Shown in pieces: positions 7,700-38,609 of a stretch of DNA of 64,000 nt (position 1 is its first letter; every line of letters begins with the position of its first letter). The position numbers and the translations under genes are program-made. The notes beneath the pieces were generated by a model. It was given only the letters and a program-made list of their open reading frames with translations, did no database searches and was not told the origin of the DNA. This stretch comes from Haloferax denitrificans ATCC 35960. GTDB lineage: Archaea; Halobacteriota; Halobacteria; Halobacteriales; Haloferacaceae. The DNA lies in NCBI RefSeq assembly GCF_000337795.1, contig NZ_AOLP01000004.1, positions 124,001-188,000 of the forward strand, in the 5' to 3' direction.

Positions 7700-7700
7700 G

Positions 7701-8567
7701 ATGGCGACGTCTTCCGGTCGCGGCCTCGTCTCCCACGACACCCAGAAACGCCTCCAGCGAATCGCCGTCTACCTGACGGCGCTTCTCATCTCGGTGTTCA
7801 CCATCATCCCGGTGTACGTGATGGTGGTCATCGCCATCCAGTCGCCGGCGACGACGTTCGCCGGCGGGCGGGTGAACCTGTTGCCCACCGAGCCGTCGCT
7901 CCGGAACTTCCTCGTCCTCCTCGGGTCGACCGACACGGTCCGGTACTTCGTCAACAGTCTCGTGGTCACCCTCGGGTCGACCGTCCTCTCGACGACTATC
8001 GCGGTCGCGGCGGGCTACGGCCTGACGCGCTTCGACTTCACCGGGAAGTCGCTGGCGGCGCGGGCGGTGCTGTTCTCGTACATGTTCAGTCCCATCGTCC
8101 TCGCTATCCCGCTGTACGTCGTCTTCTCGACGCTCGGCCTCCTCAACAGCCACTTCGCACTCACCCTCGCGCTGACGGCCATCTCCGCGCCGTTCTGCAT
8201 CTGGCTGATGTGGCAGTACTTCCAGACCGTCCCCATCGCGCTCGAAGAGTCCGCGTGGGTCCGCGGCGCGAGCCGCTGGCGCACCGTCAGAGACGTGGTC
8301 CTGCCGGTGGCCCGACCCGGCTACATCTCCGCGGCCATCTTCGCGTTCGCCGTCGCGTGGAACGACTTCACCATGGCGCGCGTCGTGATGAGCCGCGACG
8401 AGATGTACACCATCACCGTCGGCGCGTCGCTGTTCTTGGACCGCGTCAGCATCGGCTGGGGCGAGACGATGGCCGTCTCGCTTCTCATCTCGATTCCGCC
8501 GTTCCTCATCGCACTGTTCCTGCAACGATACCTCCTCCAGGGCTTCAGCGTTGGAGGCCTCGAATAA
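7701..8567 (+). CDS. ABC sugar-type permease, MalG/UgpE-like
   Basis: The 288-residue second permease has six predicted spans and the EAA loop ALEESAWVRGASRWRTVRDV (about residues 181-200). It follows the first permease by one base and its stop overlaps the ATPase start. The C-terminus (LQRYLLQGFSVGGLE) is the usual MalG-type ending. Confidence 0.93.
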   Translation: MATSSGRGLVSHDTQKRLQRIAVYLTALLISVFTIIPVYVMVVIAIQSPATTFAGGRVNLLPTEPSLRNFLVLLGSTDTVRYFVNSLVVTLGSTVLSTTIAVAAGYGLTRFDFTGKSLAARAVLFSYMFSPIVLAIPLYVVFSTLGLLNSHFALTLALTAISAPFCIWLMWQYFQTVPIALEESAWVRGASRWRTVRDVVLPVARPGYISAAIFAFAVAWNDFTMARVVMSRDEMYTITVGASLFLDRVSIGWGETMAVSLLISIPPFLIALFLQRYLLQGFSVGGLE

Positions 8568-9718: not shown

Positions 9719-10983
9719 GCGGCGACAGCGCCGAGCGCGCCAAGAGCGCCGAAAGTGCCGAGACTACCGCGGACGCGACCGGCTCTGCGACCGCGTCGGC
9801 GACGTCCGGGCTCCCGCTCGACGGCGTGCGCGTGCTCGAACTCGGTCACATCATCGCCGGGCCGTTCTGTTCGATGCTCCTCGCCGACCTCGGCGCGGAC
9901 GTCATCAAGGTCGAACACCCGAAGGGCGGCGACCTCATCCGCGGGTCGTCGCCGGTCGGAAACAGCTCGTTCAACTACGTCAACCGGGACAAGCGGAGCA
10001 TCACGCTCGACCTCAAGTCCGACGCGGCGCTCGACGCGTTCTTCGACCTGCTCGACGAGACCGACGTGGTCGTCGAGAACTACGCGCCGGGCACCGCCGA
10101 GCGACTGGGCATCGGCTACGAGCAGTTGAAAGAGACGCATCCGGACCTCGTCTACTGCTCCATCAAGGGATTCAACCCCGGTCCCTACGAGTCGTACCCC
10201 GCGCTCGACCCCATCGCCGAGGCGCTGTCGGGGCTGATGAGCGTCACCGGTCACGAGGGGATGCCCCCGGTCCGGTCGGGCACGAGCATCGCCGATATGG
10301 CCGCGTCGTTCTACGGCGCGATAGCCGTCCTCGGGGCGCTGTACCGACGCGACCGGACCGGCGAGGGGTCGAAGGTGACCGCGCCGCTGTTCGAGTCCAC
10401 CGTCTCGATGATGGGCTACTGGCTCGCGTACACCGAAGCCTACGACGACGTGCCGGGGCCGATGGGCGCGTCGCACCCCAACTGGGCACCCTACGACGTG
10501 TTCGAGACGGCCGACGACGAGTGGGTGTTCATCGGTCCCTCCGGCGAGCGTCAATGGACGGCGCTCTGCGAGGCGCTCGGTCTCGACCTCCACGAGGACG
10601 AGCGGTTCAACACGCTCCCGGACCGCCGGGAGAACCTCGACGAACTCATGGACCTGCTCCGCGCCGAGTGCGAGACGCTTCCCGCGGCCGACCTCGTCGC
10701 CGGCCTGCGCGAGGTCGGCGTCCCCGTCGCCAAGGTGAACTCGATGGACGAGGTCGCCGCCGACCCCCACCTGCGGGCGACCGACTTCTTCACCGAGGTC
10801 GAGACCGCCGAGGGAACGTCGCGGTCCGTCAGCGTCCCGCGGTTCCCGGTCGTCGCCAGCGGCTTCGGCCGACCCGAATCGACCGACCCGCCGAAGCTCG
10901 GCGAACACACCGAGGCGATTCTCTCGTCGCTCGGCTACGACGACGCCGACATCGACGCGCTCCGGCGCGTGGGAGGGGTCTGA
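9715..10983 (+). CDS. CaiB/BaiF family (class III) CoA-transferase
   Basis: The 422-residue cytoplasmic enzyme moves CoA between carboxylic acids. After a low-complexity acidic N-tail of about 30 residues, family III features follow: LDGVRVLELGHIIAGPFCSM, LADLGADVIKVEHPKGGD, an NRDKRSITLDL segment, and the Asp of NSSFNYVNRDK/ENYAPGT region expected to carry catalysis. It overlaps the ATPase gene by four bases, so the imported compound probably becomes or serves as a CoA-activated acid (inference). Donor and acceptor are not predictable. Confidence 0.9.
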   Translation: MSGDSAERAKSAESAETTADATGSATASATSGLPLDGVRVLELGHIIAGPFCSMLLADLGADVIKVEHPKGGDLIRGSSPVGNSSFNYVNRDKRSITLDLKSDAALDAFFDLLDETDVVVENYAPGTAERLGIGYEQLKETHPDLVYCSIKGFNPGPYESYPALDPIAEALSGLMSVTGHEGMPPVRSGTSIADMAASFYGAIAVLGALYRRDRTGEGSKVTAPLFESTVSMMGYWLAYTEAYDDVPGPMGASHPNWAPYDVFETADDEWVFIGPSGERQWTALCEALGLDLHEDERFNTLPDRRENLDELMDLLRAECETLPAADLVAGLREVGVPVAKVNSMDEVAADPHLRATDFFTEVETAEGTSRSVSVPRFPVVASGFGRPESTDPPKLGEHTEAILSSLGYDDADIDALRRVGGV

Positions 10984-12072
10984 ATGGCGGCCGCGGAGCC
11001 GGTCCTCCTCGACGTGACCTGCCGCGAGGGCGAACAGCGCCCCGGCGCGTCCTACACGACGGGCCAGAAAGTCGCGGCCGTCCGCGCCCTCGACGACCTC
11101 GGCGTCGACTACGTGCAGGTCGGCTTCCCGATTGCGGGCGCACAGACCGGCGAGGTCTGTGACGCCGTCGACGTGGAGACGAAGCTCACGGGCATCGCCC
11201 GCGCCGTTCCCAAGGACGTCGAGGCCGCGGTCGACGCCGGCGTCGACGTCATCGACGTGTTCGCGCCGACCAGCGAGCGCCAGCGGACCGGACTGCTCGG
11301 GAAAGACGAGGACGAACTGCGCTCGCTCGTCTGCGAGACGGTCGATGCCGCGATCGAGACCGGGCTTGAGGTCCACTTCACCGCGATGGACGGCTTCCGG
11401 ACCAACCCCGCGTTCCTCGGCGACCTGTTCGGCTCGATAGACGCGACGTACCTCACTATCGCGGACACCGTGGGCTCGAAGACGCCGTTCGAGGTGTCGT
11501 CGTTCCTCCACGACCTCGACGCCGACCCGACCCGCCTCGGGGTCCACTTCCACGACGACCTCGGCGTCGCCACGGCCAACGCGCTCACCGCGGTCGCTCA
11601 CGACGTGCAGAAGGTGGACGTATCGGTCGCCGGTATCGGCGAGCGCGCCGGCAACGTCCCCGTCGAGGAGTTCGTCGTCGCGGCCGAGACGAGCCGGGCC
11701 GTGAACCGCCCCGCGCTCGACCCCTCGACGCTCATCCCCCGGGCGAACGACGTGCTGACGGCGCTCGGGGAGTCGGTGCCGGCGGAGAAATCGGTGCTCG
11801 GCGCGGACGTGTTCTCTCACGAGTCCGGGCTCCACACGGCGGCGATGCTCGACGACCCGGCGACGTTCGAGCCGTTCGACCCGGCCGTCTTCGGTGGGTC
11901 GCGAACGCTCTACTTCGGCCCGCAGAGCGGGACCGGCGCGGCCCGACGGCTCTTGGAGCGGGTCGGCGACGACCCCGACGAAACGAAGGTCGCAGCGCTC
12001 GTCGAGACGCTCCGGTCGCTTGACGAACCGGTACCGACCGACGAGGCGCTGGACATCGCCCGGCGGCTCTGA
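10984..12072 (+). CDS. LeuA/homocitrate-synthase-like or HMG-CoA-lyase-like enzyme
   Basis: The 362-residue TIM-barrel enzyme belongs to the DRE/HMGL superfamily. Visible motifs are LDVTCREGEQRPG, HFHDDLGVATAN (metal-binding His pair) and GIGERAGNVPVEE, plus the helical lid motif SHESGLHTAAML. It lacks the C-terminal allosteric domain of 2-isopropylmalate synthase (about 500 residues), so it resembles homocitrate or re-citrate synthases. Its ATG directly abuts the CoA-transferase stop. Claisen condensation of acetyl-CoA with a 2-oxoacid, or the reverse cleavage, would fit the CoA-transferase neighbour. Leucine biosynthesis seems unlikely in this context. Confidence 0.85.
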   Translation: MAAAEPVLLDVTCREGEQRPGASYTTGQKVAAVRALDDLGVDYVQVGFPIAGAQTGEVCDAVDVETKLTGIARAVPKDVEAAVDAGVDVIDVFAPTSERQRTGLLGKDEDELRSLVCETVDAAIETGLEVHFTAMDGFRTNPAFLGDLFGSIDATYLTIADTVGSKTPFEVSSFLHDLDADPTRLGVHFHDDLGVATANALTAVAHDVQKVDVSVAGIGERAGNVPVEEFVVAAETSRAVNRPALDPSTLIPRANDVLTALGESVPAEKSVLGADVFSHESGLHTAAMLDDPATFEPFDPAVFGGSRTLYFGPQSGTGAARRLLERVGDDPDETKVAALVETLRSLDEPVPTDEALDIARRL

Positions 12073-12135
12073 ATCGGCGCTGTCTCACCGCCCAGTCGGT
12101 GCTCGGTCGGCGCTGATCCGGCACCGAATCGGCGT

Positions 12136-12855
12136 TCAGTACTCGGTCCCTTTTCTCGCGCGCTGGCCGGCGTCGATGGGGTGTTTCTCTTTTCGGACGT
12201 TGGTCACGAGGTCCGCGGCGTCGTAGATGTAGGTCGGTTCGTCGTGGCTCCCGGTCAACACGAGTTCGAGGTTCTCGGGCTTTCGCTCCACGAGGTCGAG
12301 CACGTCGGCCTCGTCGAGCAGTCCCATCGCCACCGCGTAGAGGAGTTCGTCGATGATGAGGAGGTGGACGCCGTCCTCCGGCGGGCCGTCGAGGTCGAGC
12401 GGTTCCGAGAGGTCGGCGTCGGACGCGGCGTCGACGAGTTCGCGCGCCCGGTCGAGGCCGGCGGCGACCTGCGCCTCGTGGTCGGCGTCGTCGCTCCCGT
12501 CGGCCATCCCGGCCCAGCCGTAGTGACCGAGGTTCTCGAAGGAGAACCCGGGCATCGCCGCGATGGCGTTGTACTCCCCGCGGACGGCCTCGACGGAGTC
12601 CGCGCCGCCCTTCAGGAACTGGAGCATATGGACGCGGTAGCCGTGGCCGGCGGCGCGGAAGCCCATGCCCATCGCGGCCGTGGTCTTCCCCTTGCCGTCG
12701 CCCCACCACACCTGCACGAGGCCGAAGTCGTCGGGCGCGGCGGGTTCGATGGCGGCCGCTTCGGGGCGGACGCCGCGACCCGGTGTGTTCGACCGGACCG
12801 AGTCGGGGGTGGTCTCGTCGCCTGTCTCGTGGGTTCCGTCGGGTTCGTCGGTCAT
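12136..12855 (-). CDS. cobO: Cob(I)yrinic acid a,c-diamide adenosyltransferase
   Basis: This 239-residue CobA/CobO/BtuR enzyme transfers the 5-deoxyadenosyl group from ATP to reduced corrinoid. It has the altered P-loop GDGKGKTTAAMGMGFRAAG and the family blocks VHMLQFLKGG and LLIIDELLYA. An acidic tail of about 45 residues precedes the domain. It lies 165 bp downstream of cbiA on the same strand, consistent with a late cobalamin block. Confidence 0.93.
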   Translation of the reverse strand: MTDEPDGTHETGDETTPDSVRSNTPGRGVRPEAAAIEPAAPDDFGLVQVWWGDGKGKTTAAMGMGFRAAGHGYRVHMLQFLKGGADSVEAVRGEYNAIAAMPGFSFENLGHYGWAGMADGSDDADHEAQVAAGLDRARELVDAASDADLSEPLDLDGPPEDGVHLLIIDELLYAVAMGLLDEADVLDLVERKPENLELVLTGSHDEPTYIYDAADLVTNVRKEKHPIDAGQRARKGTEY

Positions 12856-13020
12856 CGTAGTGGGTTCGAAGTCGGTGTCGCAGTCGGGTCGGCGCGGACC
12901 GCACCGGTCCGTTCCGCCCCGCGTTGGTCTGTCGTCGGTCGGTGCTTGTCGCGGCTTCGTATATAGGAGTTCGCCGCTTGCGCGCTCTTGTGGCTTTGCG
13001 TCCTCGCGCCCTCGTCGCGC

Positions 13021-14349
13021 TCAGTCAGTCAGCCGCGAGACGAAGCGGTCGAACGCCCCGCTCTCGGGGTGGACGTGGGCGTAGGTGCCGAGGGTTCGGT
13101 ACTCGGTGAGACCCTCGCGGCCGTCGATGCCGGTCCCGCGCTCCACGTCGAAGGCGAACCGGGCGTCCGTCGCCGGGTCCGCCGACGAGTAGTGGAACTC
13201 GTGGCCGCGGAGCGTCTCGCCCGCGTCGGCTGTCAGCGTCCCGTCGGTCGCGCTGAGTTCGACGTGGTCGAGCGCCTGATAGCGCTCTTGCATCGTCACG
13301 TCGGCGGGGAGGACACCCGCCATCGCGTGGGTGTCGCCGTCGGTCGTCGTCAGCGACTCGGCGAGCGCCATGAGGCCGCCGCACTCGCCGAACACCGGGA
13401 GGCCGTCGGCCGCGCGGTCGGCGAGCGCGGAGAGCGTCGGCGACGACGCGAGGTCCGCGGCGAACCGCTCGGGGTAGCCGCCGGGGAGGTAGACGCCGTC
13501 GCAGTCCGGGAGGCCGTCGCCGGCGACCGGCGAGAAGTACGAGACGGTCCCGAGCGTCTCCAACCGCTCCAGCGTCGAGGGGTAGACGAAACAGAACGCC
13601 TCGTCGCGGGCGACGGCGACCGTCGGACCGCCCGAATCCGTAGCTTGGGCTGGCTCGGCTCGAATGCCCGCGTCGAACGCCTCGGCGTCCCAGTCGGGTT
13701 CCCGTGCCACTTCCGCGAGCGCGTCGGCGCGAATCCCGTCGGCCGCGGCGTCGAGCGCCTCGTCGGACAGGGGGGCCTCGTCGCCGAGGTGGAGGCCGAG
13801 GTGGCGCTCGGGGATTTCGAGGTCGTCGCTCGGCGGGATTCGACCGAGATACGGCAGTTCCTCGGGGAGCGCGTCGCGGATGCCCTCGGCGTGGCGGCCG
13901 CCGTGGGCGCGGGAGGCGATGACGCCGGCCACGTCGGCGTCGATGCCCATCCGGTCCGCGTAGGTCCGAAAGCCGTAGGCCGTCGCCGCGACGCTTTGCA
14001 TCCCGGCTCTCGCGTCCGCGACGAGGACGACGGGGAGGTCGAGGAGGGCGGCGACGCGCGCGGTCGAGGTGTCGCCGTCGTACAGGCCCATCATGCCCTC
14101 GACGACGCAGATGTCGCCCTCGCCGCGGGCGTAGGTCCGGCGCATGCCGTCGTCGCCTTCGAGCCACGGGTCGAGACTCCGCGACGGTTTCCCGACGACT
14201 GCGGCGTGGTGCGAGGGGTCGATGAAGTCGGGGCCGGCCTTGGCGGGTTGGACCTCGTACCCCTCGCGTTCGAGCGCGCGGCACACCGCGAGCGTCGTGA
14301 CCGTCTTCCCGACGCCGGAGGCCGTGCCGGCGACGACGACGCCTCTCAT
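13021..14349 (-). CDS. cbiA: Cobyrinic acid a,c-diamide synthase
   Basis: The 442-residue CbiA/CobB enzyme amidates the a and c side chains of cobyrinate using glutamine and ATP. The N-terminal dethiobiotin-synthetase-like domain has GTASGVGKTVTTLAVCRAL, and the C-terminal class I glutaminase has the nucleophile Cys in VFGECGGLMALAE, with the partner His in the LRGHEFHYS block. Length matches the family. It precedes cobO. Confidence 0.94.
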   Translation of the reverse strand: MRGVVVAGTASGVGKTVTTLAVCRALEREGYEVQPAKAGPDFIDPSHHAAVVGKPSRSLDPWLEGDDGMRRTYARGEGDICVVEGMMGLYDGDTSTARVAALLDLPVVLVADARAGMQSVAATAYGFRTYADRMGIDADVAGVIASRAHGGRHAEGIRDALPEELPYLGRIPPSDDLEIPERHLGLHLGDEAPLSDEALDAAADGIRADALAEVAREPDWDAEAFDAGIRAEPAQATDSGGPTVAVARDEAFCFVYPSTLERLETLGTVSYFSPVAGDGLPDCDGVYLPGGYPERFAADLASSPTLSALADRAADGLPVFGECGGLMALAESLTTTDGDTHAMAGVLPADVTMQERYQALDHVELSATDGTLTADAGETLRGHEFHYSSADPATDARFAFDVERGTGIDGREGLTEYRTLGTYAHVHPESGAFDRFVSRLTD

Positions 14350-14510
14350 CTCGCCACCGCGGTCCGCGTCGCGGACGGCGCGTCCGTCGGGTCGCTCGCG
14401 AGTCGAGACGGGTGTTCGGCAGTCATGTCAACAAGTGCGTTTTCAGTAGTCAAAGTTGTATTGGGTTCGGCCGGGTCGCCGCCGGCACCGTTCGGCGACT
14501 CGCGTCTCGC

Positions 14511-15521
14511 TCAGTTCCAGAGGTCGTACATGTCGTCTTCGACGCCGTCGGCGTGGTGGGTTCCGTCGTAGACGACGCCCGGGGCCGGCGCGCTCGAATC
14601 CGCGCCACCGCTCGCGTTCGTTCCGTCTCCCGCCGCTTCGACGGTTCCGACGACCGTCGCCTCGATACCCTCGGCGTCGAGCGCGTCGAGCGCGTCGTCG
14701 GCCTCGTCCTCGGGGACCGCCGCGAGGAGCGCGCCGGAGCCGAGAATCCGCATCGGGTCGACGCCCATCGCGTCGCAGAGCGCCCGCGTCTCGGGGCGGA
14801 CGGGCACGTCGTCGCCGTCGACCTCGATGCGGACCTCGGAGGCGCAGGCGAGTTCGACCAGTCCGTTGAGGACGCCGCCCTCGGTCGGGTCGTGCATCGC
14901 GGTCGCGACCGGCGCGAGCACCGCCGACTCGGGGAGGACGCTGATGTCGTCGAAGAAGCCCGCGGCGCGGTCGACCGTCTCGGCGTCGACGCCCGCCGCG
15001 TCGAGGTCGGCGCGGAAGTCGGTGGCGAGGACCGCGGTGCCCTCGACGCCGGCTCCTTTGGTGAGAATCACCGCGTCGCCGGGTTCCGCGCCGCTCGTCG
15101 GGACGTACCGGTCGGTCGGTCCCATGCAGGTGAGAGAAAGGAGCGGCCGCGAGAGCCCGGCGACCGTTTCGGTGTGGCCGCCGATGATGCTGATACCGAG
15201 TCTGCTGGCCTCCGAGTCGAGCTGTGCGGTGATGTCGTCGAGGAGGTCCACGTCCGGTTCGGGGAGAAGGACGGTGCTCACGAGCCACTCGGGGACGCCC
15301 CCGCAGGCGGCCACGTCGTTGCTGGCGATGGCGACGCCGAGCGTGCCGATGCGCTCGGCGGCGAGCGAGATGGGGTCGGTGCTGACGACCATCGTCCCCT
15401 CGCCGGTGGCGACGGCGGCGGCGTCCTCGCCGTAGCCGGCCCCGACGAGCAGGTCGTCGTTGGGTGCCCCCGTCCGCGAGAAGACGTAGCGGTCGAGGTC
15501 CGCAGGTGAGAGTTTGCCCAT
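14511..15521 (-). CDS. AIR-synthase-like (HypE/ThiL-related) protein
   Basis: This 336-residue protein belongs to the PurM/AIR synthase superfamily of ATP-dependent enzymes. It shows GAGYGEDAAAVATGEGTMVV near the N-terminus, VSTDPIS, a FGVPEWL-like CGGVPEWLV segment, GGHTE and a Gly-rich C-terminal lobe. It most resembles archaeal HypE-related proteins annotated as AIR synthase-related; no hydrogenase genes are nearby, so a HypE role is doubtful. ATG at 15521 starts MGKLSPADLDRYV. It is divergent from the aminotransferase gene. Confidence 0.75.
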   Translation of the reverse strand: MGKLSPADLDRYVFSRTGAPNDDLLVGAGYGEDAAAVATGEGTMVVSTDPISLAAERIGTLGVAIASNDVAACGGVPEWLVSTVLLPEPDVDLLDDITAQLDSEASRLGISIIGGHTETVAGLSRPLLSLTCMGPTDRYVPTSGAEPGDAVILTKGAGVEGTAVLATDFRADLDAAGVDAETVDRAAGFFDDISVLPESAVLAPVATAMHDPTEGGVLNGLVELACASEVRIEVDGDDVPVRPETRALCDAMGVDPMRILGSGALLAAVPEDEADDALDALDAEGIEATVVGTVEAAGDGTNASGGADSSAPAPGVVYDGTHHADGVEDDMYDLWN

Positions 15522-15639
15522 ACACGTGGCTGACGGCGAGGGCGCTTTTGTGCCTTCCCGTCCGCCGCCGGCGCGGACGGTCGCACCCCTCGGCCGCGGA
15601 TGCCGTACTGCTAAGACGCTCTGTTCGCAACGGCAATCC

Positions 15640-16686
15640 ATGCTGATGACACCCGGCCCCACGGCCGTCCCGCCGCGGGTCCGCGACCGACTGAGCGACC
15701 CGATGCCGAACCCAGACATCGAGCAGTCCTTCTTCGACACCTACGACGGGGTCTGCGAGAAACTCGGGCGCGTCTACGACACCGACGACGACGTGGTCGT
15801 CATGGGCGGCGAGGGAATCCTCGGCCTCGAAGCCGCCATCGCCTCCACGGTCGCCCCCGGCGACGACGTGCTCTGCGTCTCGAACGGCCTCTACGGCGAC
15901 GGCTTCGCCGACTTCGTCGAGAGCTACGGCGGCGAGCCGACGCTCGTCGGTGCCGACTACACCGACCCGCTCGACGTGGCCGGCGTCGAAGCCGCGCTCG
16001 ACGACGGCGAGTTCGACGTCGCCACGATGGTCCACTGCGAGACGCCGACGGGCACGCTCAACGACATCGCGCCGGTGCTCGAACTCTGCCACGACCACGG
16101 CGTGCTGACTATCGTCGACGCCGTCTCCTCGCTCGGCGGGACGCCCGTCCCGAGCGAGCACATCGACATCAACCTCGGCGCGTCCCAGAAGGCGTTTAGC
16201 TCGCCGCCGGGGCTGACGACGGCCGCCGTCAGCGACCGCGCGTGGGAGGTCGTCGAGGAGCGCGACCCCGACTCCCTCTACACGAACCTCCTCCCGTGGC
16301 GCGACACGAGCGAGGGCTTCCCGTACACCCACCTCGGCGCGAACGTCGCCGCCCTCGACGAGTCGCTGTCGATGCTCCTCGAAGAGGGACTCGACGCCGT
16401 CTACGAGCGCCACGAGGCGGCCGCCGCGCACTGCCGCGAGCGCGGGGCCGACCTCGGTCTCGACCGCTACCCCGACGCCGACCGGAGCGCCCCGACGGTG
16501 ACGGCGTTCCACCTCCCCGGCGAGGCGAAACGCGTCCAATCGGAACTCGAAGCCGACCACGACATCGTCCTCGCCACCGGGCTCGCCGACCTCGCCGACG
16601 ATATCCTGCGCGTCGGCCACATGGGCTACAACGCCGACGTGGAGAAGGTCGACCGCGTGATGGACGCGCTCTCGTCCGTCGTCTGA
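15640..16686 (+). CDS. Class V aminotransferase (alanine-glyoxylate/serine-pyruvate type)
   Basis: The 348-residue PLP enzyme begins MLMTPGPTAVPPRV, the family start. It has IVDAVSSLGG (Asp binding the pyridine nitrogen) and GASQKAFSSPPGL, where Lys is the Schiff-base residue. The C-terminal small domain ends LRVGHMGYNADVEKV. It probably transaminates glyoxylate or pyruvate with a small amino acid donor. It is monocistronic, and the 119-bp gap to the divergent AIR-like gene holds both promoters. Confidence 0.9.
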   Translation: MLMTPGPTAVPPRVRDRLSDPMPNPDIEQSFFDTYDGVCEKLGRVYDTDDDVVVMGGEGILGLEAAIASTVAPGDDVLCVSNGLYGDGFADFVESYGGEPTLVGADYTDPLDVAGVEAALDDGEFDVATMVHCETPTGTLNDIAPVLELCHDHGVLTIVDAVSSLGGTPVPSEHIDINLGASQKAFSSPPGLTTAAVSDRAWEVVEERDPDSLYTNLLPWRDTSEGFPYTHLGANVAALDESLSMLLEEGLDAVYERHEAAAAHCRERGADLGLDRYPDADRSAPTVTAFHLPGEAKRVQSELEADHDIVLATGLADLADDILRVGHMGYNADVEKVDRVMDALSSVV

Positions 16687-16706
16687 GACCGGCATCTCGT
16701 CTACGT

Positions 16707-16794
16707 CCGACCGGCGTTCCATCTGCGGCTGACTGGCGTTCCGTCTGCGGCTGACTGGCGTTCCGTCTGCGGCCGACCGGCGTTCCGTCTGCGG
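16707..16794. repeat. Four tandem copies of a 22-bp unit
   Basis: Units start at 16707, 16729, 16751 and 16773, consensus C(C/T)GAC(C/T)GGCGTTCC then (A/G)TCTGCGG. Units two and three are identical; a degraded fifth unit precedes at 16685. The array fills the gap after the aminotransferase gene. No spacers, so it is a minisatellite rather than CRISPR. Confidence 0.9.
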
Positions 16795-16847
16795 CCGGCC
16801 GCCGTCTGGGCTGTCAACGCTTTTGCCCGACGCCGACGACAGTCCCG

Positions 16848-17489
16848 ATGAGAACAACCGTGACCGAGACGAGCGATTCGGCGGGAGGGCGACGGCGGCG
16901 ACCGGACGACGGAATCAGATACGCAATCGTCGCCGTGTTCCTGACGGGACTCCGCCGCCGTAACCCGGCCGCGATGGTGAACGCCGCGTTCGCGCTCGCG
17001 GGCACGTACCTCCCCGACGCCTTCGAGCGACTGGTCGGAGTCGAGTTCCGCCCGTGGCAACGCGTCTACGTCGAGTCGGCCATGCTGACCCACTCGGTCG
17101 GGATGCTCGGTCCCTACGACGACGTGTGGTGGTGGGACCACCTGACTCACGCCCACTCCGCGACGATTCTCGGCGGGGTCGTTCACGTGCTCTCCCGTCG
17201 CCGCGGCCGCGACCCCTCGACCCGTGTGCTCGCGGTCGTCGTCTGCGCCGGTGTGCTTTGGGAACTCGCCGAGTACGCCATCCACCGCGGGGCCGACGCG
17301 CTCGGTATCAACCCCGTGCTCGTCTCCTACGGCCGAACCGACACCGCGCTCGACCTCCTGTTTAACCTCGTCGGCGCGGCGCTCGTCGTCCTGTTCGGCG
17401 ACCGCGCCCTGACGAATCTCGTCCCACCGACGGAGGCGGAGGAGGAAACGGGTTCGGGACCCCCCGACTCGGTCCCGCGCGGTCGATAG
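16848..17489 (+). CDS. Integral membrane protein (DUF2238/YjdF-like)
   Basis: The 213-residue protein has four or five hydrophobic segments and the notable stretch DDVWWWDHLTHAHSATILGG, with several His and Trp near the membrane face, then VLWELAEYAIHRG and DTALDLLFNLVGA. This His/Glu/Asp pattern resembles DUF2238 (YjdF-like) membrane proteins. The function is unknown. Basic residues at about 15-20 precede the first span. Confidence 0.7.
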   Translation: MRTTVTETSDSAGGRRRRPDDGIRYAIVAVFLTGLRRRNPAAMVNAAFALAGTYLPDAFERLVGVEFRPWQRVYVESAMLTHSVGMLGPYDDVWWWDHLTHAHSATILGGVVHVLSRRRGRDPSTRVLAVVVCAGVLWELAEYAIHRGADALGINPVLVSYGRTDTALDLLFNLVGAALVVLFGDRALTNLVPPTEAEEETGSGPPDSVPRGR

Positions 17490-31277: not shown

Positions 31278-32273
31278 ATGGCTCAGAAGGACGGAACCAC
31301 AGGCTCCGAACGTATCATCGGTCTGTCGAAATCCGACGCGGCCGACCGCGTCGTGGACGCGGACGAGTCCCGAGACCCCGACACCGTTCGGGCGGTGCTC
31401 AGTCACGTGACCGAAGACGGCGCGGTGACGGCCGACGGCGTCGACTCGGCGGTCACGGACACGTCGATGATTCTGTCGACCGCGGAGACGCGCGTCGAAC
31501 TCGCGTCCATCGACCTCGACGACGCCCGCGAGGCCGCCGGCGACGACGCGGCCGTCGGTGCCGTGCGGTCCCGTCTCGACGTGTTCGAGGCGACGGTTAC
31601 GAACGCGAGCGAGCGGGTCGCGTCGCTCGGCGAGGAGCTACAGGGGCTCTCCGACTGGCGCGACGACCCCCGGTCCGTCTACGACATCGTGCTCGGACTC
31701 CGCGAGGTCGCCTCCGAGTCGCAGGCGCTCACCGCGCACGCGGACGACATACAACTCGACATCGAGGAGTTCGAACGGTGGCTCTCGAACCACGACGTTC
31801 GCGTGCGCGGGCTCGACGGCGACGTGGCGGCGCTCGAACAGTCGCTCGACGGACTCGCCGACCGGGTCGAGGCCGTCGCCGACGCGGAGAGGTCCGACGA
31901 CGGCGCCGACGCCGCCGAGGACGCTGACGGCGACCGCGCGACCGAGTGGTGCAACGCCGCGCTCCGGGTCCGCGTCTCCGCCCTATTGGTCGAGGACGTG
32001 CGGGCCGAACTCGCCGACCTCCGGGAACTGGCTCCCGAGTCTGACGCGGAGACCGACGGTCTCGACGATGCCGCCGCCGACCTCGACGACCTCGACGCCC
32101 GCGTACAGCGACTCCGCGAGCGCCTCGACGAACTCGCCCGACCCCCGTGGACCGACGAGTACGGGGCGCGAATCGAGTCGTTCGAGGAGACGCTCGCCGC
32201 GTTCGAACCGCCGGTGTCGTGGGGCGCGGTGCAGGCCGAACTCGACGACGCTCGGGCCGGCGATGACGGGTGA
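31278..32273 (+). CDS. Acidic coiled-coil protein, divergent from pst
   Basis: The 331-residue protein is very acidic and mostly helical, with two coiled-coil regions (about residues 95-215 and 245-315). It starts with SERIIGLSKSDAADRVVDAD, followed by repeated SDxxxV-like helical motifs. Similar haloarchaeal proteins are sometimes labelled halo transducer protein; no membrane span or signalling domain is visible. TATA-like AAAATATA lies at 31255-31262. Role unknown; its head-to-head position with pstS may mean phosphate co-regulation. Confidence 0.7.
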   Translation: MAQKDGTTGSERIIGLSKSDAADRVVDADESRDPDTVRAVLSHVTEDGAVTADGVDSAVTDTSMILSTAETRVELASIDLDDAREAAGDDAAVGAVRSRLDVFEATVTNASERVASLGEELQGLSDWRDDPRSVYDIVLGLREVASESQALTAHADDIQLDIEEFERWLSNHDVRVRGLDGDVAALEQSLDGLADRVEAVADAERSDDGADAAEDADGDRATEWCNAALRVRVSALLVEDVRAELADLRELAPESDAETDGLDDAAADLDDLDARVQRLRERLDELARPPWTDEYGARIESFEETLAAFEPPVSWGAVQAELDDARAGDDG

Positions 32274-32285
32274 GTGGAGGCCCGC

Positions 32286-35200
32286 TCACTCCAAGAGCAG
32301 AACCGAGGGGAGGCGGTCGGGGCTGTCCAGTCGTAACAGCGAGTAGACGACGCCGGAGAGACCGTGGAAGAACATCGGGTTCGCGAAGGTTTCGGTGTGT
32401 CCGGTCATCGAAAGCTCGCCGTGAGCGGCCCTCCGGGTGAGGCTCCGACGGGCCAGTTCAGTCGCGTGCGACTCGTCGAGGGGGCCGCGGCGCGCGCCGA
32501 CGAGGAGCGACTCGACCCGCCCGAAGTTTCCGCAACAGAGGTGGTCCATGTTCGACGGTTCGGCACGGGCGGTCTCCGAGAGCGCGTCAATCGCGGTGTC
32601 GCGGAGGTCGCGGTCGTCGAGCGTGTCCGCGATGCCGAGCCGGGCGAGCGCCATTCCCGACCGCCCGTGGCACCACTTATCGTCGTAACTCCGGTCATCG
32701 TGGGATTTCGCCCAGTTGTTCCGGCTCGGGTCGTACAGCGACGATTCGAAGGCGAGCGCCTCGCGCGCCGCGTCCGAGAACCGCCCGTCCCCCGTCGCCT
32801 CGGCGAGTCGAGCGAGCGCGTAGCCGATTCCGGACGCACCGTGTGAAAACCCCGTGAGCGGCGGGTCGTCGTCGGCAGTCCGCCACACTCGGTAGCCGTT
32901 TTCGAGCGCGCGGCCATCGAGGAGGCGCTCCCCGCACGCGACCGCTCGGTCGAGGACGGACTCGTCGCCGTGCCGCTCGTAGTACGCGAGGAGGCCGAGC
33001 AGCGTCCCGGCGGAACCCTCCAGCACGTCGAACGTCTCGTCGTTCGCCACGTGGGACTCCGTGACGGTCTCCGCTGCCGAGCGCGCGGCGCGGCGGTACT
33101 CGTCGGCGTCGAGGAGTTCCGAGACGACCGTGAGCGTGTAGACGACCGACCCGACCCCGAGCATCCCGCCCAAGTTCGGCGGCGGGCCGCCGTCTCCGAT
33201 GGCGGAGAGCACGGGCGATAAGACCTCCTCCGCCACGGTTCGATAGCGCGCCTCGCCCGTGGTTTCGAAGAGCGCCGCGGCCGCGAGGGCGATGCCGCCG
33301 CGTCCGTGGTACAGCGAGAAGTCCGTCGGGTAGAGGTCGATGCCCGTCTTCGTCGGCGAGATAGATACCCAGGCGTCGCCGTCCGGCGTCTCGATACCGG
33401 CGTCCAGAACCTCCTCGAACAACGCCCTCGCGGTCGAATCGAACGCGTCGGCCGATATGTCGGGCTCCGGTGCCGGACCCGGAACCTGCGGCCCGAAGGC
33501 GTACTGCAGTAGCCACGCTTGGCGGTCGCGGTCGTCGTCGCTCATCGAGTCGACCCGCTGTCGGCATCGGTCGTACCCGGGGGTATCGACCTCAACGGGG
33601 AGTTCGTCCCCGTCGTGGACGACCGTGCCGCTCGTCGGCGACGAGGCGAACCGCGGGAAGTCACGGCGGCGGAGCGCCCGCCGTTCGGCCGCATACAGCG
33701 GCCAGTACTCGTCGGCGTCGATTCGGCCGTCGAAGAAGGGCACGGCGAGCTTTTCGTACTCGACCGAGAGGCGAGCCCCGTCTCGAAGCGGGTCGCGCGC
33801 GGCCGCCGACCGGAGAATCGAGCCGTACCGGGCCGTCGCCCGGTACACCAACCGGTTTTCGATACCATCGACGAGGTCGCAAGGCAACACGTCGCCGAAG
33901 AACGCGCCGTCTTCGCGCAACGAGCGGATGGCGTCGTAGGCTTCGGTAAACCCCTCGACGAGCGGCTCGGTGTACGAAACCGGCGGGTGGTCGCGCTCCG
34001 CGGTGCTCGCGGTGTTCGTGGTCAGGTTGACTTCCGGTCGAACCTCCGTTACCGTCATGACGTCCGTGTTCGCCGCTTCGATACCGGGTTTGGAGACGTC
34101 TTTGAACCCCCGTTCGCTCGAACTACCGAACCCGGCGTGCGGAACGCCGGCGTCGTCGTCGCTCGGGGTGCGCGGATCGCCGACCGACCACGGTGCCAAC
34201 AGCGTCGCGAGTACCGTGCTGTGGGCGACCGTGGACACTTCCGTCGGTGTCGGCATGGCCGCCGGGTCAACGTGGGGGTGGAAGACCGTCTCGCCGTCAA
34301 CGACCATCGGACTCTCGCCGTCCACGAGGAGGTTCTCGTACTGGCAGTCGGTCACGTTGAGCGCGTACGCGACGCAGGTGAGGACGCCCGCCTGCTCGTA
34401 GTACCGCCGAACCGCGTCCTCGTCGGCCAAGTCGTCGTACGCTATCGGTTCCATCCACCCGTAGCCGTCTCTGGGAAGGTACTCCGGCGGCCGAAAGGTC
34501 GCGACCGACGTGTGGTCGCTCACTCGTTCGAGCACCTCGTACAGGGCCACGCCGCCGCCGACGCCTCTCGGTTTGTAGATGACGTCGGCCGACCCGAACG
34601 AGACGCGGACGGGGATTCGGCCCCTCGCGTGCGCGTCCGTCGAGAGCGGTTCGAGCGCGGTCACCGAGCCGTCGATACCGAACCGCTCTCTGAGCGCGGG
34701 GGTGTCGTCGCGAATCCGCCGGCAGAGTTCGGAGACCGCGTCGCCCCAGTTGTCGATGATGACGGCGATTTGTCGGGCGAGAACGGGGTACTCGACGCAG
34801 AGGTTGGACACCCCGTGTGCGAACATCGCGTCGATGAACTCCTCGTAGTACTCCGTCGGTGGGTCGTCGAACTCGTCGGGGTCGGCAGCGGCGAGTTCGG
34901 GGTCGAAGTGCTCTACGAAGCTCTTGAACTCGACGTACAGCGGCCGGACGCAGAGCGCGTGAAACCGCCTGGTTAGTCCCTCGACCAACGGTTCCAACGA
35001 CTTGTCCGGAACGGAGAGCGTGCCGAGCCGGCTCCGCGCGAACTCGCTGAACCCGGTCAAAAGCTCACGGAACGGAACATCGTCCGGCGTGCTTGAGTAG
35101 CGTGTCGGGTCGGAAGCTCGGAGATACTCGATTAGCTCTTCGACCGTCTCGAGCCACGCCGGGAGCGGCTCGTCGCTCGGCCACAACGTGGCCGCGGATT

Positions 35201-35435
35201 GCGTTTCGACGTCCGCCCGCCGGATTCCGTCGGCCGCCAGCCGCTCAGCGAACTGTTCCTCGTCGGCGAAGAGGCCCTCCCACTCGTCCAGAACCGCGTT
35301 CGGAGATATCTCGGGGTCGGGACCGGGGTCGTTCGGTGGCCCGTCGAGACGCTCGTGGAGCGTCCGGGCGCGACCGGCGATTTCGCGACGTTGTCGTTGT
35401 GTGAACACCATCTCGTCAGCTGTCGATGTCGTCAT
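32286..35435 (-). CDS. lanM: Class II lanthipeptide synthetase LanM
   Basis: This 1049-residue bifunctional enzyme would dehydrate Ser/Thr in a precursor and join Cys to make thioether rings. The dehydratase (DUF4135, about 150-620) shows VIYKPRG (Lys288), DCQYENLL (363-370) and VVDGETVFHP; the LanC cyclase (about 720-1045) shows GFSHGASGIGYALARL, KWCHGRSG (Cys922), HLCCGNFG (Cys967, Cys968) and FFHGLSG. Cys922, Cys967 and Cys968 should bind zinc; the usual Cys-His pair is Cys-Cys here. The start at 35435 (MTTSTADEMVF) excludes a poor-quality upstream extension. It lies 113 bp after the precursor gene. Confidence 0.95.
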   Translation of the reverse strand: MTTSTADEMVFTQRQRREIAGRARTLHERLDGPPNDPGPDPEISPNAVLDEWEGLFADEEQFAERLAADGIRRADVETQSAATLWPSDEPLPAWLETVEELIEYLRASDPTRYSSTPDDVPFRELLTGFSEFARSRLGTLSVPDKSLEPLVEGLTRRFHALCVRPLYVEFKSFVEHFDPELAAADPDEFDDPPTEYYEEFIDAMFAHGVSNLCVEYPVLARQIAVIIDNWGDAVSELCRRIRDDTPALRERFGIDGSVTALEPLSTDAHARGRIPVRVSFGSADVIYKPRGVGGGVALYEVLERVSDHTSVATFRPPEYLPRDGYGWMEPIAYDDLADEDAVRRYYEQAGVLTCVAYALNVTDCQYENLLVDGESPMVVDGETVFHPHVDPAAMPTPTEVSTVAHSTVLATLLAPWSVGDPRTPSDDDAGVPHAGFGSSSERGFKDVSKPGIEAANTDVMTVTEVRPEVNLTTNTASTAERDHPPVSYTEPLVEGFTEAYDAIRSLREDGAFFGDVLPCDLVDGIENRLVYRATARYGSILRSAAARDPLRDGARLSVEYEKLAVPFFDGRIDADEYWPLYAAERRALRRRDFPRFASSPTSGTVVHDGDELPVEVDTPGYDRCRQRVDSMSDDDRDRQAWLLQYAFGPQVPGPAPEPDISADAFDSTARALFEEVLDAGIETPDGDAWVSISPTKTGIDLYPTDFSLYHGRGGIALAAAALFETTGEARYRTVAEEVLSPVLSAIGDGGPPPNLGGMLGVGSVVYTLTVVSELLDADEYRRAARSAAETVTESHVANDETFDVLEGSAGTLLGLLAYYERHGDESVLDRAVACGERLLDGRALENGYRVWRTADDDPPLTGFSHGASGIGYALARLAEATGDGRFSDAAREALAFESSLYDPSRNNWAKSHDDRSYDDKWCHGRSGMALARLGIADTLDDRDLRDTAIDALSETARAEPSNMDHLCCGNFGRVESLLVGARRGPLDESHATELARRSLTRRAAHGELSMTGHTETFANPMFFHGLSGVVYSLLRLDSPDRLPSVLLLE

Positions 35436-35492
35436 AGTAGGTGTGAATCGGTACGCTACGGGGTGAATCGGAGAGCATCTGCAGGCCGTCGG

Positions 35493-35498
35493 AAAAAA
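35493..35498 (-). terminator. T-run between lanA and lanM
   Basis: On the minus strand six T (GGTTTTTTCC) follow 51 bp after the precursor stop. It could partly terminate transcription, giving much precursor mRNA and less lanM readthrough, a common arrangement in lanthipeptide clusters. Weak evidence: short run without a strong hairpin. Confidence 0.35.
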
Positions 35499-35548
35499 CC
35501 GATGTCCCTCTCCGCGGTCGAGCGGCGCGGAGAAGGCTCGGAGACACC

Positions 35549-35728
35549 TCAGTTGGTGGTGTCGCAGCAGGGGAGCTTCGAGGCCGTGTGACACGGGAGG
35601 TAGCACGACGCCGTCCCGGTGCTGTCGTGGGACATCTCGAACTTGTCTGAGATGATCGACCCGAAGAGGCCGTCGTAGTGCGATTTGTCAACAGTACGTG
35701 CAATATTGATGTCCAATGCTACTGACAT
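35549..35728 (-). CDS. Putative lanthipeptide precursor peptide LanA
   Basis: The 59-residue peptide starts MSVALDINIARTVDKSHYDG, an acidic leader-like half, and ends in a Ser/Thr/Cys-rich core: Ser36, Thr37, Thr39, Ser41, Cys42, Cys46, Thr48, Ser50, Cys54, Cys55, Thr57 and Thr58. Four Cys in 14 residues is exceptional in haloarchaea, and they sit downstream of dehydratable residues as thioether rings need. There is no GG/GA cleavage motif in the middle. ATG at 35728 is preferred to a TTG at 35731 because a TATA box lies 28 nt upstream. It precedes lanM on the same strand. Confidence 0.82.
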   Translation of the reverse strand: MSVALDINIARTVDKSHYDGLFGSIISDKFEMSHDSTGTASCYLPCHTASKLPCCDTTN

Positions 35729-35750
35729 CAAAATGTATATCTGGCCGACT

Positions 35751-35761
35751 TGTTATAAATC
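35751..35761 (-). promoter_or_regulatory. TATA box for the precursor gene
   Basis: GATTTATAACA (minus strand) is centred about 28 nt before the precursor ATG, correct for a leaderless transcript. A second similar element, GAATTTATAACC, lies 20 bp further upstream at 35773-35784. The precursor therefore has its own promoter, separate from the exporter genes. Confidence 0.65.
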
Positions 35762-35839
35762 TAATGGCAATTGGTTATAAATTCAGCTCGTGCTGTCGCT
35801 GGGGAGAGCGGGACGGCACCCCGAACGGTGGACGACCGC

Positions 35840-36679
35840 TCAGTAGTGTCCCATGACGCCCCGGCGCCGAGCGACTCGCGAGCAGTACTTGAAAACGACG
35901 TATCCGCAGACGAGATAACCGACGCCGACTCCGAGGAGCACGGACAGTTCCCCGGCCGAGAACTCCCACAGCCGAACCCCCCGGCGCATCGATTGCTGGA
36001 GGAGCGCAGAGCCCTGAACGAGCGGCAGCAACCGAAGGAGCGGCACGTCCGCCGTCGGTGCCCCAACGAGGCCGACCATCGCGAACTGCATGAGGTTCGA
36101 AACCGCCCCGATTCGCTTGTAGATGAGCGCGAGCCCCGCGAACACGAACCCGATTCCGACGACCGAAAGTAGCGCCGCGAGTACGACGGGGACGATAGTG
36201 AGCAGGTCGACCGAGAGCGTTCGGCCCGTGGTCACCAGCATGAGAACGAGGATGAGCCCCCCGATGGCCATGCTCTGAATCACGTTGGAGGCCGCTTTCA
36301 GGAGCATGATACGCCCGAACCCGAACGGGGACATATACAGCTGTTCGAGGGTTCCCCACTGGGACTCCTGCGTGACGTTCCCGGAGAGACCGGAGTAGGC
36401 GCCCTGTGCCATCGTCCAGAGGAACCAGCCGACGATGACGCCATTGAGTGTCGAATCGAGCGATTGTGGAGACCCGCCGATTCCGCCGACGACCGCTTGT
36501 CCGCCGAAGAAGACGATGGCGAAGAACACGTACATCGTCGCCACGTTGATGGCGAAGTTCACTCGGTACCGGAGCATCACGGTGAACTGCTTTCTGACGA
36601 TCTCCCAGAGGAGTCGGCCGAAGCCAGCAAGCGTGGTCTCGCTACCGGGACTGGTCGAATGCGCTGTCTCCGAACTCAT
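35840..36679 (-). CDS. ABC-2 type permease of the lanthipeptide cluster
   Basis: The 279-residue membrane protein has six predicted spans (for example FAINVATMYVFFAIVFFG, GGLILVLMLVTTG and LSVLLGVGVGYLVCGYVVF) and the ABC-2 pattern with a soluble loop between spans two and three (TQESQWGTLEQLYMSPFG). Its ATG overlaps the ATPase stop (ATGA), so the two are co-translated. It ends 111 bp before the precursor start. It would export the peptide or protect the producer; it has no protease domain. Confidence 0.88.
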   Translation of the reverse strand: MSSETAHSTSPGSETTLAGFGRLLWEIVRKQFTVMLRYRVNFAINVATMYVFFAIVFFGGQAVVGGIGGSPQSLDSTLNGVIVGWFLWTMAQGAYSGLSGNVTQESQWGTLEQLYMSPFGFGRIMLLKAASNVIQSMAIGGLILVLMLVTTGRTLSVDLLTIVPVVLAALLSVVGIGFVFAGLALIYKRIGAVSNLMQFAMVGLVGAPTADVPLLRLLPLVQGSALLQQSMRRGVRLWEFSAGELSVLLGVGVGYLVCGYVVFKYCSRVARRRGVMGHY

Positions 36680-37734
36680 GTCTGCGTGTCCATCCGCTGT
36701 GAACGGTCGGACTCGAGCGGGCCCTCGGAAGGCTCGTTCGTCAGTTGGATGAATACCTCCTCGAGGTCGGGTTCTACCGAGGTGAACGACTCGACGTCGC
36801 ACCCGGCCTCGCGCAGGCCGTCGACGAGACGGTAAAACTCGTCGCCGCCGACGCGGACCGAAAACTGGGTCGAACCGCCCCTCGTCTCGAACGAATCCGC
36901 GTCGAACTGAGCCGAGAGACGCCGGCGGATCTCCTGTGGGAGCGTTCCGTCGACCACGATTCGATACGACTGAATGTCGAACACGTCGAGGAGGTTCGAG
37001 ACGCTCCGGTCGGTGACGACTTCGCCGTCGTTCATCACCACGACCCGGTCGCAGATGTCCTCGATGACGTCCATGTCGTGGCTCGACAGGAGGAGCGTCG
37101 TCCCTCGGTCCGTGACGAGGCGTCGAAGCTCCTCGCGCAGTTCGAGCGAACTCTCGACGTCGAGTCCGAGCGTCGGCTCGTCCAGAAGGACGACATCGGC
37201 GTCCCTCGCGAGCGTACACGCGAGCGAGACTTTCTGTTTTTCGCCCCGCGAGAGTTCTCTGACGGTCGAATCGGCTTTGTCCGTGAGCCCGAACTTATCG
37301 AGTAACTCCCGTTGTCGCCGCTCCGTTCGCCGCGTCGATTCTCCGGCGAGCGCCGCGAAAAACCGCATGTTCTCCCGCACCGTCAGCCGCCAGTAGACGT
37401 TCCGTGCGCCCTCTAACATCGCCCCGATATGTCGATACGCGCGCTCCGGTTCGTCGTGGATGTCGGTTCCGTGAACCCGGACGGTACCGCCCGTGGGGAC
37501 GATGAGCCCGAGTACCGATTTAATCGTGGTCGTCTTCCCGGCCCCGTTGGGTCCGAGTAGCCCGACGGCAGTGCCTCGCTCGATGTCGAAGTCGACTCGC
37601 TCGACCGCCGTAACCGACCCGTCGCTCCCCTCGTACTGCTTGTGGAGGTCCGATACGGAGAGGACGGTCGCTTCGGTATCGGTGGAGGGCTCGGCTTCGT
37701 CAGCGCGTACTGACGAATCGTGTACGTCTCCCAT
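36676..37734 (-). CDS. ABC ATPase of the lanthipeptide cluster
   Basis: The 352-residue CcmA-type ATPase has Walker A GLLGPNGAGKTTTIKSVLGL, signature ELSRGEKQKVSLACTLARDA and Walker B VVLLDEPTLGLDVESSLELR, followed by a C-terminal domain of about 90 residues. The class serves ABC-2 exporters such as LanFEG immunity pumps and drug exporters. No C39 peptidase domain is attached. ATG at 37734 follows a GTG one codon upstream; TATA-like ATTTATTATAG lies about 31 nt before it. Confidence 0.9.
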   Translation of the reverse strand: MGDVHDSSVRADEAEPSTDTEATVLSVSDLHKQYEGSDGSVTAVERVDFDIERGTAVGLLGPNGAGKTTTIKSVLGLIVPTGGTVRVHGTDIHDEPERAYRHIGAMLEGARNVYWRLTVRENMRFFAALAGESTRRTERRQRELLDKFGLTDKADSTVRELSRGEKQKVSLACTLARDADVVLLDEPTLGLDVESSLELREELRRLVTDRGTTLLLSSHDMDVIEDICDRVVVMNDGEVVTDRSVSNLLDVFDIQSYRIVVDGTLPQEIRRRLSAQFDADSFETRGGSTQFSVRVGGDEFYRLVDGLREAGCDVESFTSVEPDLEEVFIQLTNEPSEGPLESDRSQRMDTQT

Positions 37735-37758
37735 CACGTCAGTTCGTGACGACGGTCT

Positions 37759-37788
37759 ACTATAATAAATTGTTGGCTGTTAAACAAT
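37759..37788 (-). promoter_or_regulatory. Promoter and palindrome before the exporter genes
   Basis: The minus-strand TATA-like element ATTTATTATAG (37759-37769) is flanked upstream by an inverted repeat ATTGTT-N8-AACAAT (37769-37788). The repeat abuts the TATA/BRE position, where a repressor would block TBP/TFB loading. It is the only clear palindrome in the lanthipeptide cluster. Confidence 0.45.
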
Positions 37789-38006
37789 AACAAGAGCCCC
37801 GAAGGGTCACGCAGTCGTCCGGCTTTTGAGGTGTGTCCTCAGTTCCGAGCCGGACGAGCGCCTCGGAACTGTCTGTTCGCACCGTCTCTCCGTGAGTCGG
37901 TGAATTTGTGAACGGAGCCGGACCACGAAATATCATATCCACTACGTAAATCGCGTTCAGCGAACGTACATATGTGTTCGGTCCCTCGGTCTAACTGCGA
38001 ACACCA

Positions 38007-38609
38007 ATGTCAGACTACGAACTTGACCCCCTCCCGTACGAGTACGACGCCCTTGAACCCCACATCTCCGAGCAGGTGCTGACGTGGCATCACGACACCC
38101 ACCATCAGGGCTACGTCAACGGCTGGAACGCGGCCGAGGAGACTCTCGCTGACAACCGCGAAGCAGGCGAGTTCGGCTCGTCCGCCGGCGCGCTCCGCAA
38201 CGTCACCCACAACGGCTCGGGACACATTCTGCACGACCTGTTCTGGCAGAACATGTCGCCGGAAGGCGGCGACGAGCCCGAGGGCGCGCTCGCAGAGCGC
38301 ATCGCGGAGGACTTCGGCTCCTACGAGGCGTGGAAGGGCGAATTCGAAGCGGCGGCCGGCGCGGCCGGCGGCTGGGCGCTCTTGGTGTACGACTCGTTCT
38401 CGAACCAGCTTCGGAACGTCGTCGTCGACAAGCACGACCAGGGCGCGCTCTGGGGCTCTCACCCGATTCTCGCGCTGGACGTCTGGGAGCACTCGTACTA
38501 CCACGACTACGGCCCGGCCCGCGGCGACTTCGTCTCCGCGTTCTTCGAGGTCGTCGACTGGGAAGAACCGTCGGCCCGCTACGACCAGGCCGTCGAACTC
38601 TTCGAGTAA
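38007..38609 (+). CDS. sod: Superoxide dismutase (Mn/Fe)
   Basis: The 200-residue enzyme dismutates superoxide. Metal ligands are visible in HISEQVLTWHHDTHHQGYVN, then GSGHILHDLFWQNM and LDVWEHSYYHDYG (Asp and His). Length and all ligands are normal, with MnSOD-like residues as in other haloarchaea. Monocistronic; a ATATG-rich promoter region lies at about 37965. Confidence 0.96.
   Translation: MSDYELDPLPYEYDALEPHISEQVLTWHHDTHHQGYVNGWNAAEETLADNREAGEFGSSAGALRNVTHNGSGHILHDLFWQNMSPEGGDEPEGALAERIAEDFGSYEAWKGEFEAAAGAAGGWALLVYDSFSNQLRNVVVDKHDQGALWGSHPILALDVWEHSYYHDYGPARGDFVSAFFEVVDWEEPSARYDQAVELFE

What the first reader, a model, noticed from the sequence alone, without database searches (positions are those of the whole stretch)
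32286..37734. Archaeal class II lanthipeptide biosynthetic cluster
Four minus-strand genes fit a lanthipeptide pathway: ABC-2 ATPase and permease (coupled by ATGA), a 59-residue Cys-rich precursor with its own TATA box, and a full-length LanM with both dehydratase and cyclase motifs. Lanthipeptides are classically bacterial; I recall LanM-like enzymes being noted in a few haloarchaea, but the product from this arrangement appears uncharacterised to me. A halophilic, S-layer cell without a bacterial wall implies a target other than lipid II.
Basis: partly seen in the sequence, partly recalled or inferred. Interest (0 to 1): 0.92.

Follow-up and report, generated by a model that had tools for sequence, protein, structure and literature searches.

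The report
Known haloarchaeal lanthipeptide (ciblan) gene cluster
A salt-loving archaeon carries a compact four-gene set that makes and exports a small sulfur-bridged peptide, and published work on what is almost certainly this same cluster has already reported the peptide (ciblan A2), so the find is real but not new.

Summary
On the minus strand lie an ABC ATPase, an ATGA-coupled ABC-2-type permease, a 59-aa precursor (LanA) with a conserved TATA box, and a full-length LanM (1049 aa from ATG 35435). LanM scores 630.6 bits against TIGR03897 (cut-off 304). All genes are under purifying selection. The 5.65-kb cassette is absent from the orthologous site in four congeners.

The claim that the product is uncharacterised does not hold. 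Archaeal class II lanthipeptides were isolated in 2023 and 2025. The 2025 paper expressed BGC cib2 of Haloferax denitrificans DSM 4425 and obtained ciblan A2, with anti-haloarchaeal extract activity and increased motility. The window genome matches H. denitrificans ATCC 35960 in contig number (21) and GC, and has a single lanM. The NMR topology of ciblan A1 (Ser2-Cys6, Cys7-Thr9, one Dhb) fits only ASKLPCCDTTN, the precursor's C-terminus.

Remaining points of interest: the core is a two-unit repeat (TASCYLPCH-TASK-LPCC-DTTN; three units in Natrinema gari), and ciblan covers only the last unit although the first is equally conserved. The kinase motif is DxQ instead of DxH, and the zinc motif is CCG. 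The genome has no detectable C39 peptidase, so the leader protease is unknown.

The parts
32286..35435 (-). lanM: class II lanthipeptide synthetase, 1049 aa, ATG start; N-terminal lipid-kinase-like dehydratase plus C-terminal LanC-like cyclase
   Evidence: TIGR03897 630.6 bits; DUF4135 + LANC_like; AlphaFold model best matches LicM2 6st5 and CylM 5dzt
35549..35728 (-). lanA: 59-aa lanthipeptide precursor (leader about residues 1-38, core about 39-59)
   Evidence: conserved next to lanM in six genomes; dN/dS 0.04-0.19
35588..35614 (-). core repeat 1, residues 39-47 TASCYLPCH (not covered by the published ciblan)
   Evidence: T39 A40 S41 C42 L44 P45 C46 invariant in six precursors
35552..35584 (-). 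predicted ciblan segment, residues 49-59 ASKLPCCDTTN (rings S50-C54 and C55-T57, Dhb at T58)
   Evidence: only LanA-like place matching the Ser2-Cys6/Cys7-Thr9 spacing of ciblan A1
35752..35759 (-). TATA-box-like TTTATAAC, 23 nt before the lanA ATG; predicts a leaderless transcript
   Evidence: conserved position in six genomes
35480..35548 (-). lanA-lanM spacer with GC-rich hairpin followed by a T6 run; possible partial terminator or processing site (weak)
   Evidence: hairpin in three Haloferax species, but z-score only -1.33
35840..36679 (-). ABC-2-type permease (279 aa)
   Evidence: Pfam ABC2_membrane_3 only weak (E 0.042), relative in L046 5e-6; AlphaFold model (pLDDT 80) matches KpsM/Wzm/TarG permeases
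36676..37734 (-). ABC transporter ATPase, DrrA-like (352 aa from ATG 37734; GTG 37737 also possible)
   Evidence: ABC_tran 1.9e-31; ATGA overlap with permease
32280..37929 (.). extent of the cassette missing at the orthologous site of four congeners
   Evidence: flank alignments

Best explanation
This is a minimal haloarchaeal class II lanthipeptide cluster, very probably BGC cib2 of Haloferax denitrificans (ATCC 35960, which I recall as the same strain as DSM 4425). LanM binds the LanA leader, phosphorylates and eliminates Ser/Thr in the core (N-terminal domain), and adds Cys thiols to the dehydro-residues at its zinc site (C-terminal domain). A protease encoded outside the cluster removes the leader and, in the published product, also the first core repeat, leaving a 10-11 residue bicyclic peptide, (A)SKLPCCDTTN with S-C and C-T thioether rings and one Dhb (ciblan A2). 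The ABC pair exports the peptide or protects the producer. The peptide acts on haloarchaea (antagonism and motility/shape), not on bacterial lipid II. Shown here: genes, families, conservation, cassette boundaries, the fit of sequence to published topology. Shown in the literature: ciblan A1/A2 from cib BGCs. Inferred: strain identity, residues of the mature peptide, transporter role, protease.
For: LanM family, catalytic and zinc motifs and fold. Precursor conserved beside lanM in six genomes of four families, with a monophyletic LanM clade (100/99 support) matching core type. Purifying selection; between this window and G132 the core differs in 13 of 22 codons but in one residue. Genome of 21 contigs, 3,825,973 bp, window GC 66.1% against H. 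denitrificans ATCC 35960: 21 contigs, 66.27% GC; and the same-species genome G001 (about 30 contigs, 3.8 Mb) against H. sulfurifontis: 29 contigs, 3.82 Mb (PMC3404096). Single lanM in the genome. Ciblan A1 topology Ser2-Cys6, Cys7-Thr9, Dhb; A2 b5/b8 and z2 (PMC12144867) fit only ASKLPCCDTTN-type cores among LanA-like ORFs. Transporter pair next to lanM in most archaeal LanM loci examined. Same arrangement on H. gibbonsii plasmid pHG2.
Against: The ciblan sequences are in figures or supplements I could not read, and no held paper prints the core. Assembled length differs slightly from the published one (3,825,973 against 3,848,468 bp). Strain equivalence ATCC 35960 = DSM 4425 is from memory; no paper confirmed it. 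The kinase DxH histidine (CylM His349) is Gln here, and CylM-H349A is impaired; but LarM of H. larsenii, whose larlan product was isolated, also has Gln.
Confidence: 0.85

Rival explanations
1. The repeated core is a genuine multi-unit array: each TAS(C/K)xLPC unit is modified, and native processing yields more than one ring peptide, or one longer peptide containing both units, of which ciblan is only the C-terminal fragment seen in a heterologous host.
For: Repeat 1 is as conserved as repeat 2 in six precursors; Natrinema gari has three units, the last two identical in TASKHLPC protein sequence but differing at synonymous sites; another archaeal precursor has CSWT repeats (L077). Host-dependent proteolysis is documented for archaeal lanthipeptides (PMC12144867).
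Against: Published ciblan products begin inside the second unit; repeat 1 could instead serve as a spacer or recognition element. No mass data here.
Confidence: 0.25
2. The window is a different Haloferax strain with the same precursor, so the cluster is a close homologue of cib2 rather than cib2 itself.
For: H. prahovense and H. gibbonsii carry the same cluster with an identical core; the genome name is withheld.
Against: Contig count of exactly 21 and a sister same-species genome with about 30 contigs match H. denitrificans and H. sulfurifontis.
Confidence: 0.15
3. The genes are present but silent or decayed: a relic with no product.
For: Patchy presence: 3 of 15 genus genomes hold this cluster, and the same-species genome G001 lacks it within a 21-kb gap. 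Some archaeal lanthipeptides were not seen in wild-type extracts.
Against: All frames intact, dN/dS well below 1 in all four genes, conserved promoter spacing.
Confidence: 0.05
4. The ABC pair is an immunity pump (LanFEG-like) rather than the exporter.
For: No C39 peptidase domain in the pair or detected in the genome; small ABC-2 permease without peptidase, as in LanFEG-type immunity transporters (general knowledge); DrrA-like ATPase.
Against: No other dedicated exporter in the cassette; the fold is also that of polymer exporters.
Confidence: 0.4

Closest known systems
Ciblans A1/A2, BGCs cib1 (Haladaptatus cibarius) and cib2 (H. denitrificans DSM 4425), PMC12144867
   Same: Same host species by assembly statistics; single LanM; precursor C-terminus matches the Ser2-Cys6/Cys7-Thr9/Dhb topology
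   Different: None demonstrated; published product accounts for only the second core repeat
Archalans, medlans, larlans (Halorussus, H. mediterranei, H. larsenii), PMC10105419 and PMC12144867
   Same: Archaeal class II LanM, short LanA with D-K-x-x-Y/F-D-x-x-F type leader
   Different: LanM about 46-55% identical; unrelated core sequences
Bacterial class II systems (CylM, LicM2)
   Same: Fold and two-domain LanM
   Different: About 17-20% identity in the structural alignment; archaeal Gln in DxH and Cys in CHG; no LanT with C39 peptidase
ProcM-type CCG LanMs of cyanobacteria
   Same: CCG zinc motif in the cyclase (PMC12328550)
   Different: One adjacent precursor here instead of many dispersed ones

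Membership tests
Class II lanthipeptide synthetase (LanM) | One protein with DUF4135 dehydratase and LanC-like cyclase, above the curated TIGR03897 cut-off | tested here: met
   630.6 bits against cut-off 304, residues 140-1039; both Pfam domains
Class II lanthipeptide synthetase (LanM) | Kinase residues equivalent to CylM K274, D347, N352, D364 | tested here: met
   K288, D363, N368, D380 by alignment; all invariant in A1
Class II lanthipeptide synthetase (LanM) | DxH catalytic histidine (CylM H349) | tested here: not met
   DCQ (Q365); 15 of 30 archaeal LanMs have Gln. CylM-H349A keeps slow activity and the LarM locus, with a known product, has Gln, so this is a variation, not exclusion
Class II lanthipeptide synthetase (LanM) | Three zinc ligands in the cyclase | tested here: met
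   C922 plus C967-C968 (CCG variant of CHG) and a LanC-like barrel
Lanthipeptide precursor (LanA) | Short ORF beside lanM with conserved leader and Ser/Thr+Cys core | tested here: met
Ciblan family | Ser-Cys (i,i+4), Cys-Thr (i,i+2) rings and Dhb | tested here: inconclusive
   sequence permits exactly this in ASKLPCCDTTN; rings cannot be seen from DNA; published precursor text not readable
Canonical bacterial class II export | LanT with C39 peptidase | tested here: not met
   no PF03412 match in the genome
Lanthipeptide | Lan/MeLan thioethers in the mature peptide | not testable with these tools
   needs mass spectrometry or NMR

The most novel reading that the evidence does not exclude
The precursor is a tandem-repeat, multi-unit lanthipeptide substrate: each TAS(C/K)xLPC unit becomes a ring, and native proteolysis releases a second product (or a larger multi-ring peptide) from the N-terminal unit that the published ciblan work did not account for.
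Probability: 0.25. Interest if true: 0.5.

Novelty: already known. Interest (0 to 1): 0.3.

Why it matters
It ties a raw-sequence observation to a chemically characterised archaeal peptide family and corrects the idea that this is unexplored. What is still open is useful: why an equally conserved first core repeat is absent from the known product, which protease outside the cluster matures the peptide, how the kinase works with Gln in place of the DxH histidine, and what the archaeal target is.

Tried and rejected
1. LanM in viral contigs: none, so no virus link. 2. C39 peptidase and subtilisin-like S8/halolysin as leader protease: neither found in the genome. 3. Literature search for the core letters: no text match; figures and supplements not available. 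4. Orphan second precursor or second lanM in the genome: only one each. 5. lanA-lanM hairpin as an attenuator: folding z-score only -1.33, kept as a weak remark. 6. Target-site duplications at the cassette edges: no exact repeat of 9 bp or more reported, so no mobile-element signature. 7. The 1106-aa LanM start at GTG 35606: rejected because it runs through lanA.

Full report
What is there. Reading the minus strand, the window holds an ABC ATPase (36676-37734/37737), a permease (35840-36679) whose ATG overlaps the ATPase stop as ATGA, a 59-residue ORF (35549-35728) and a long ORF ending at 32286. The long ORF's real start is ATG 35435 (1049 aa). It matches TIGR03897 LanM at 630.6 bits against a curated cut-off of 304, with DUF4135 and LANC_like domains. 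Its AlphaFold model (pLDDT 79) has LicM2 (6st5) and CylM (5dzt) as best solved matches. The permease is almost invisible to Pfam, but its model matches KpsM/Wzm/TarG ABC-2 permeases.

Precursor. The 59-aa ORF has relatives of 98, 97, 64, 61 and 44% identity immediately upstream of lanM in five other genomes. A search of 391 genomes of the class finds strong matches only in those six, in four families. The LanMs of the six form one clade with 100/99 support, so enzyme and core type travel together. LanM dN/dS is 0.10-0.17 and lanA 0.04-0.19. Between this window and G132 (LanM 59% identical) the last 22 codons differ at 13 codons but at one amino acid. A TTTATAAC box ends 23 nt before the ATG, and T/A boxes sit 23-25 nt upstream in all six, as expected for a leaderless haloarchaeal transcript (established knowledge).

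Locus. In four congeners the flanking ORF (31278-32273) and the superoxide dismutase gene (38007-38609) are adjacent with about 110-125 bp between them. Homology stops at 32279 and resumes at 37930, so the cassette is about 5.65 kb. The same arrangement lies on plasmid pHG2 of H. gibbonsii, where LanM is annotated but lanA is only a hypothetical protein. The same-species genome G001 lacks window 19441-40778 altogether.

Identity and prior knowledge. The genome has 21 contigs and 3,825,973 bp, and the window is 66.1% GC. Lynch et al. 2012 give 21 contigs and 66.27% GC for H. denitrificans ATCC 35960 and 29 contigs for H. sulfurifontis (PMC3404096), matching this genome and G001. PMC12144867 (2025) expressed BGC cib2 from H. 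denitrificans DSM 4425 in H. volcanii and obtained ciblan A2; cib1 of Haladaptatus cibarius gave ciblan A1, whose NMR shows Ser2-Cys6, Cys7-Thr9 and one Dhb, with b6/b9 in A1 and b5/b8 in A2. A scan of small ORFs near all the LanM loci finds the pattern S...CC.T close to the C-terminus of a LanA-like ORF only in the window, its two congeners and G132. It corresponds to ASKLPCCDTTN, and removing the first Ala gives exactly b5/b8. Since the genome has one lanM, the cluster in the window is very probably cib2. Crude cib2 extract was anti-haloarchaeal; the cib2 strain was more motile, with rod-shaped cells and raised flgA1 expression. Archalan alpha acted on haloarchaea and not significantly on the bacteria tested (PMC10105419).

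Mechanism. By homology to CylM (PMC4550811) LanM phosphorylates Ser/Thr and eliminates phosphate, then its zinc site activates Cys. K288, D363, N368 and D380 are present; the DxH His is Gln365, shared by 15 of 30 archaeal LanMs, including the H. larsenii LarM locus whose larlan product is known. The zinc motif is CCG, a feature linked to relaxed specificity in ProcM-like enzymes (PMC12328550); 26 of 30 archaeal LanMs have it (my count). No C39 peptidase or S8 protease was detected, so leader removal needs another host protease, in line with the published suggestion of proteases outside the clusters. The ABC pair is found near most archaeal lanM genes examined; whether it exports or protects is not decided.

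What is left open. The core is a repeat: TASCYLPCH-TASK-LPCC-DTTN, and three units in Natrinema gari, whose last two TASKHLPC units are the same protein sequence with synonymous differences. Ciblan covers only the last unit, yet the first is equally conserved. Either it is a spacer or recognition element removed with the leader, or a second product exists. This is the one point on which the finding could still yield something new.

Noticed in passing
window 19441-40778: This 21.3-kb stretch (KDPG aldolase, GFO/IDH oxidoreductase, PhoU and pst phosphate transport operon, the lanthipeptide cassette, sod, EamA transporter) is missing in the same-species genome G001, where the flanks join cleanly.
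   Followed up: partly
window 38007-38609: Superoxide dismutase gene with a second copy on another contig of the same genome (G000:C11, 97% identical); duplicated or fragmented sod copies recur across the genus.
   Followed up: no
L136 (H. gibbonsii pHG2) 4806-17296: The sod - lanthipeptide - pst block is plasmid-borne in H. gibbonsii, suggesting the window lies on a megaplasmid.
   Followed up: partly
L077 8636 (archaeon QS_1_68_20): Precursor-like ORF ending in CSWTCSWTCSWTSTY: another tandem-repeat core in an archaeal LanA; the same MAG carries four LanM loci.
   Followed up: no
window 34341-34343 (LanM residue 365) and homologues: Half of the archaeal LanMs examined replace the kinase DxH histidine by Gln.
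   Followed up: partly
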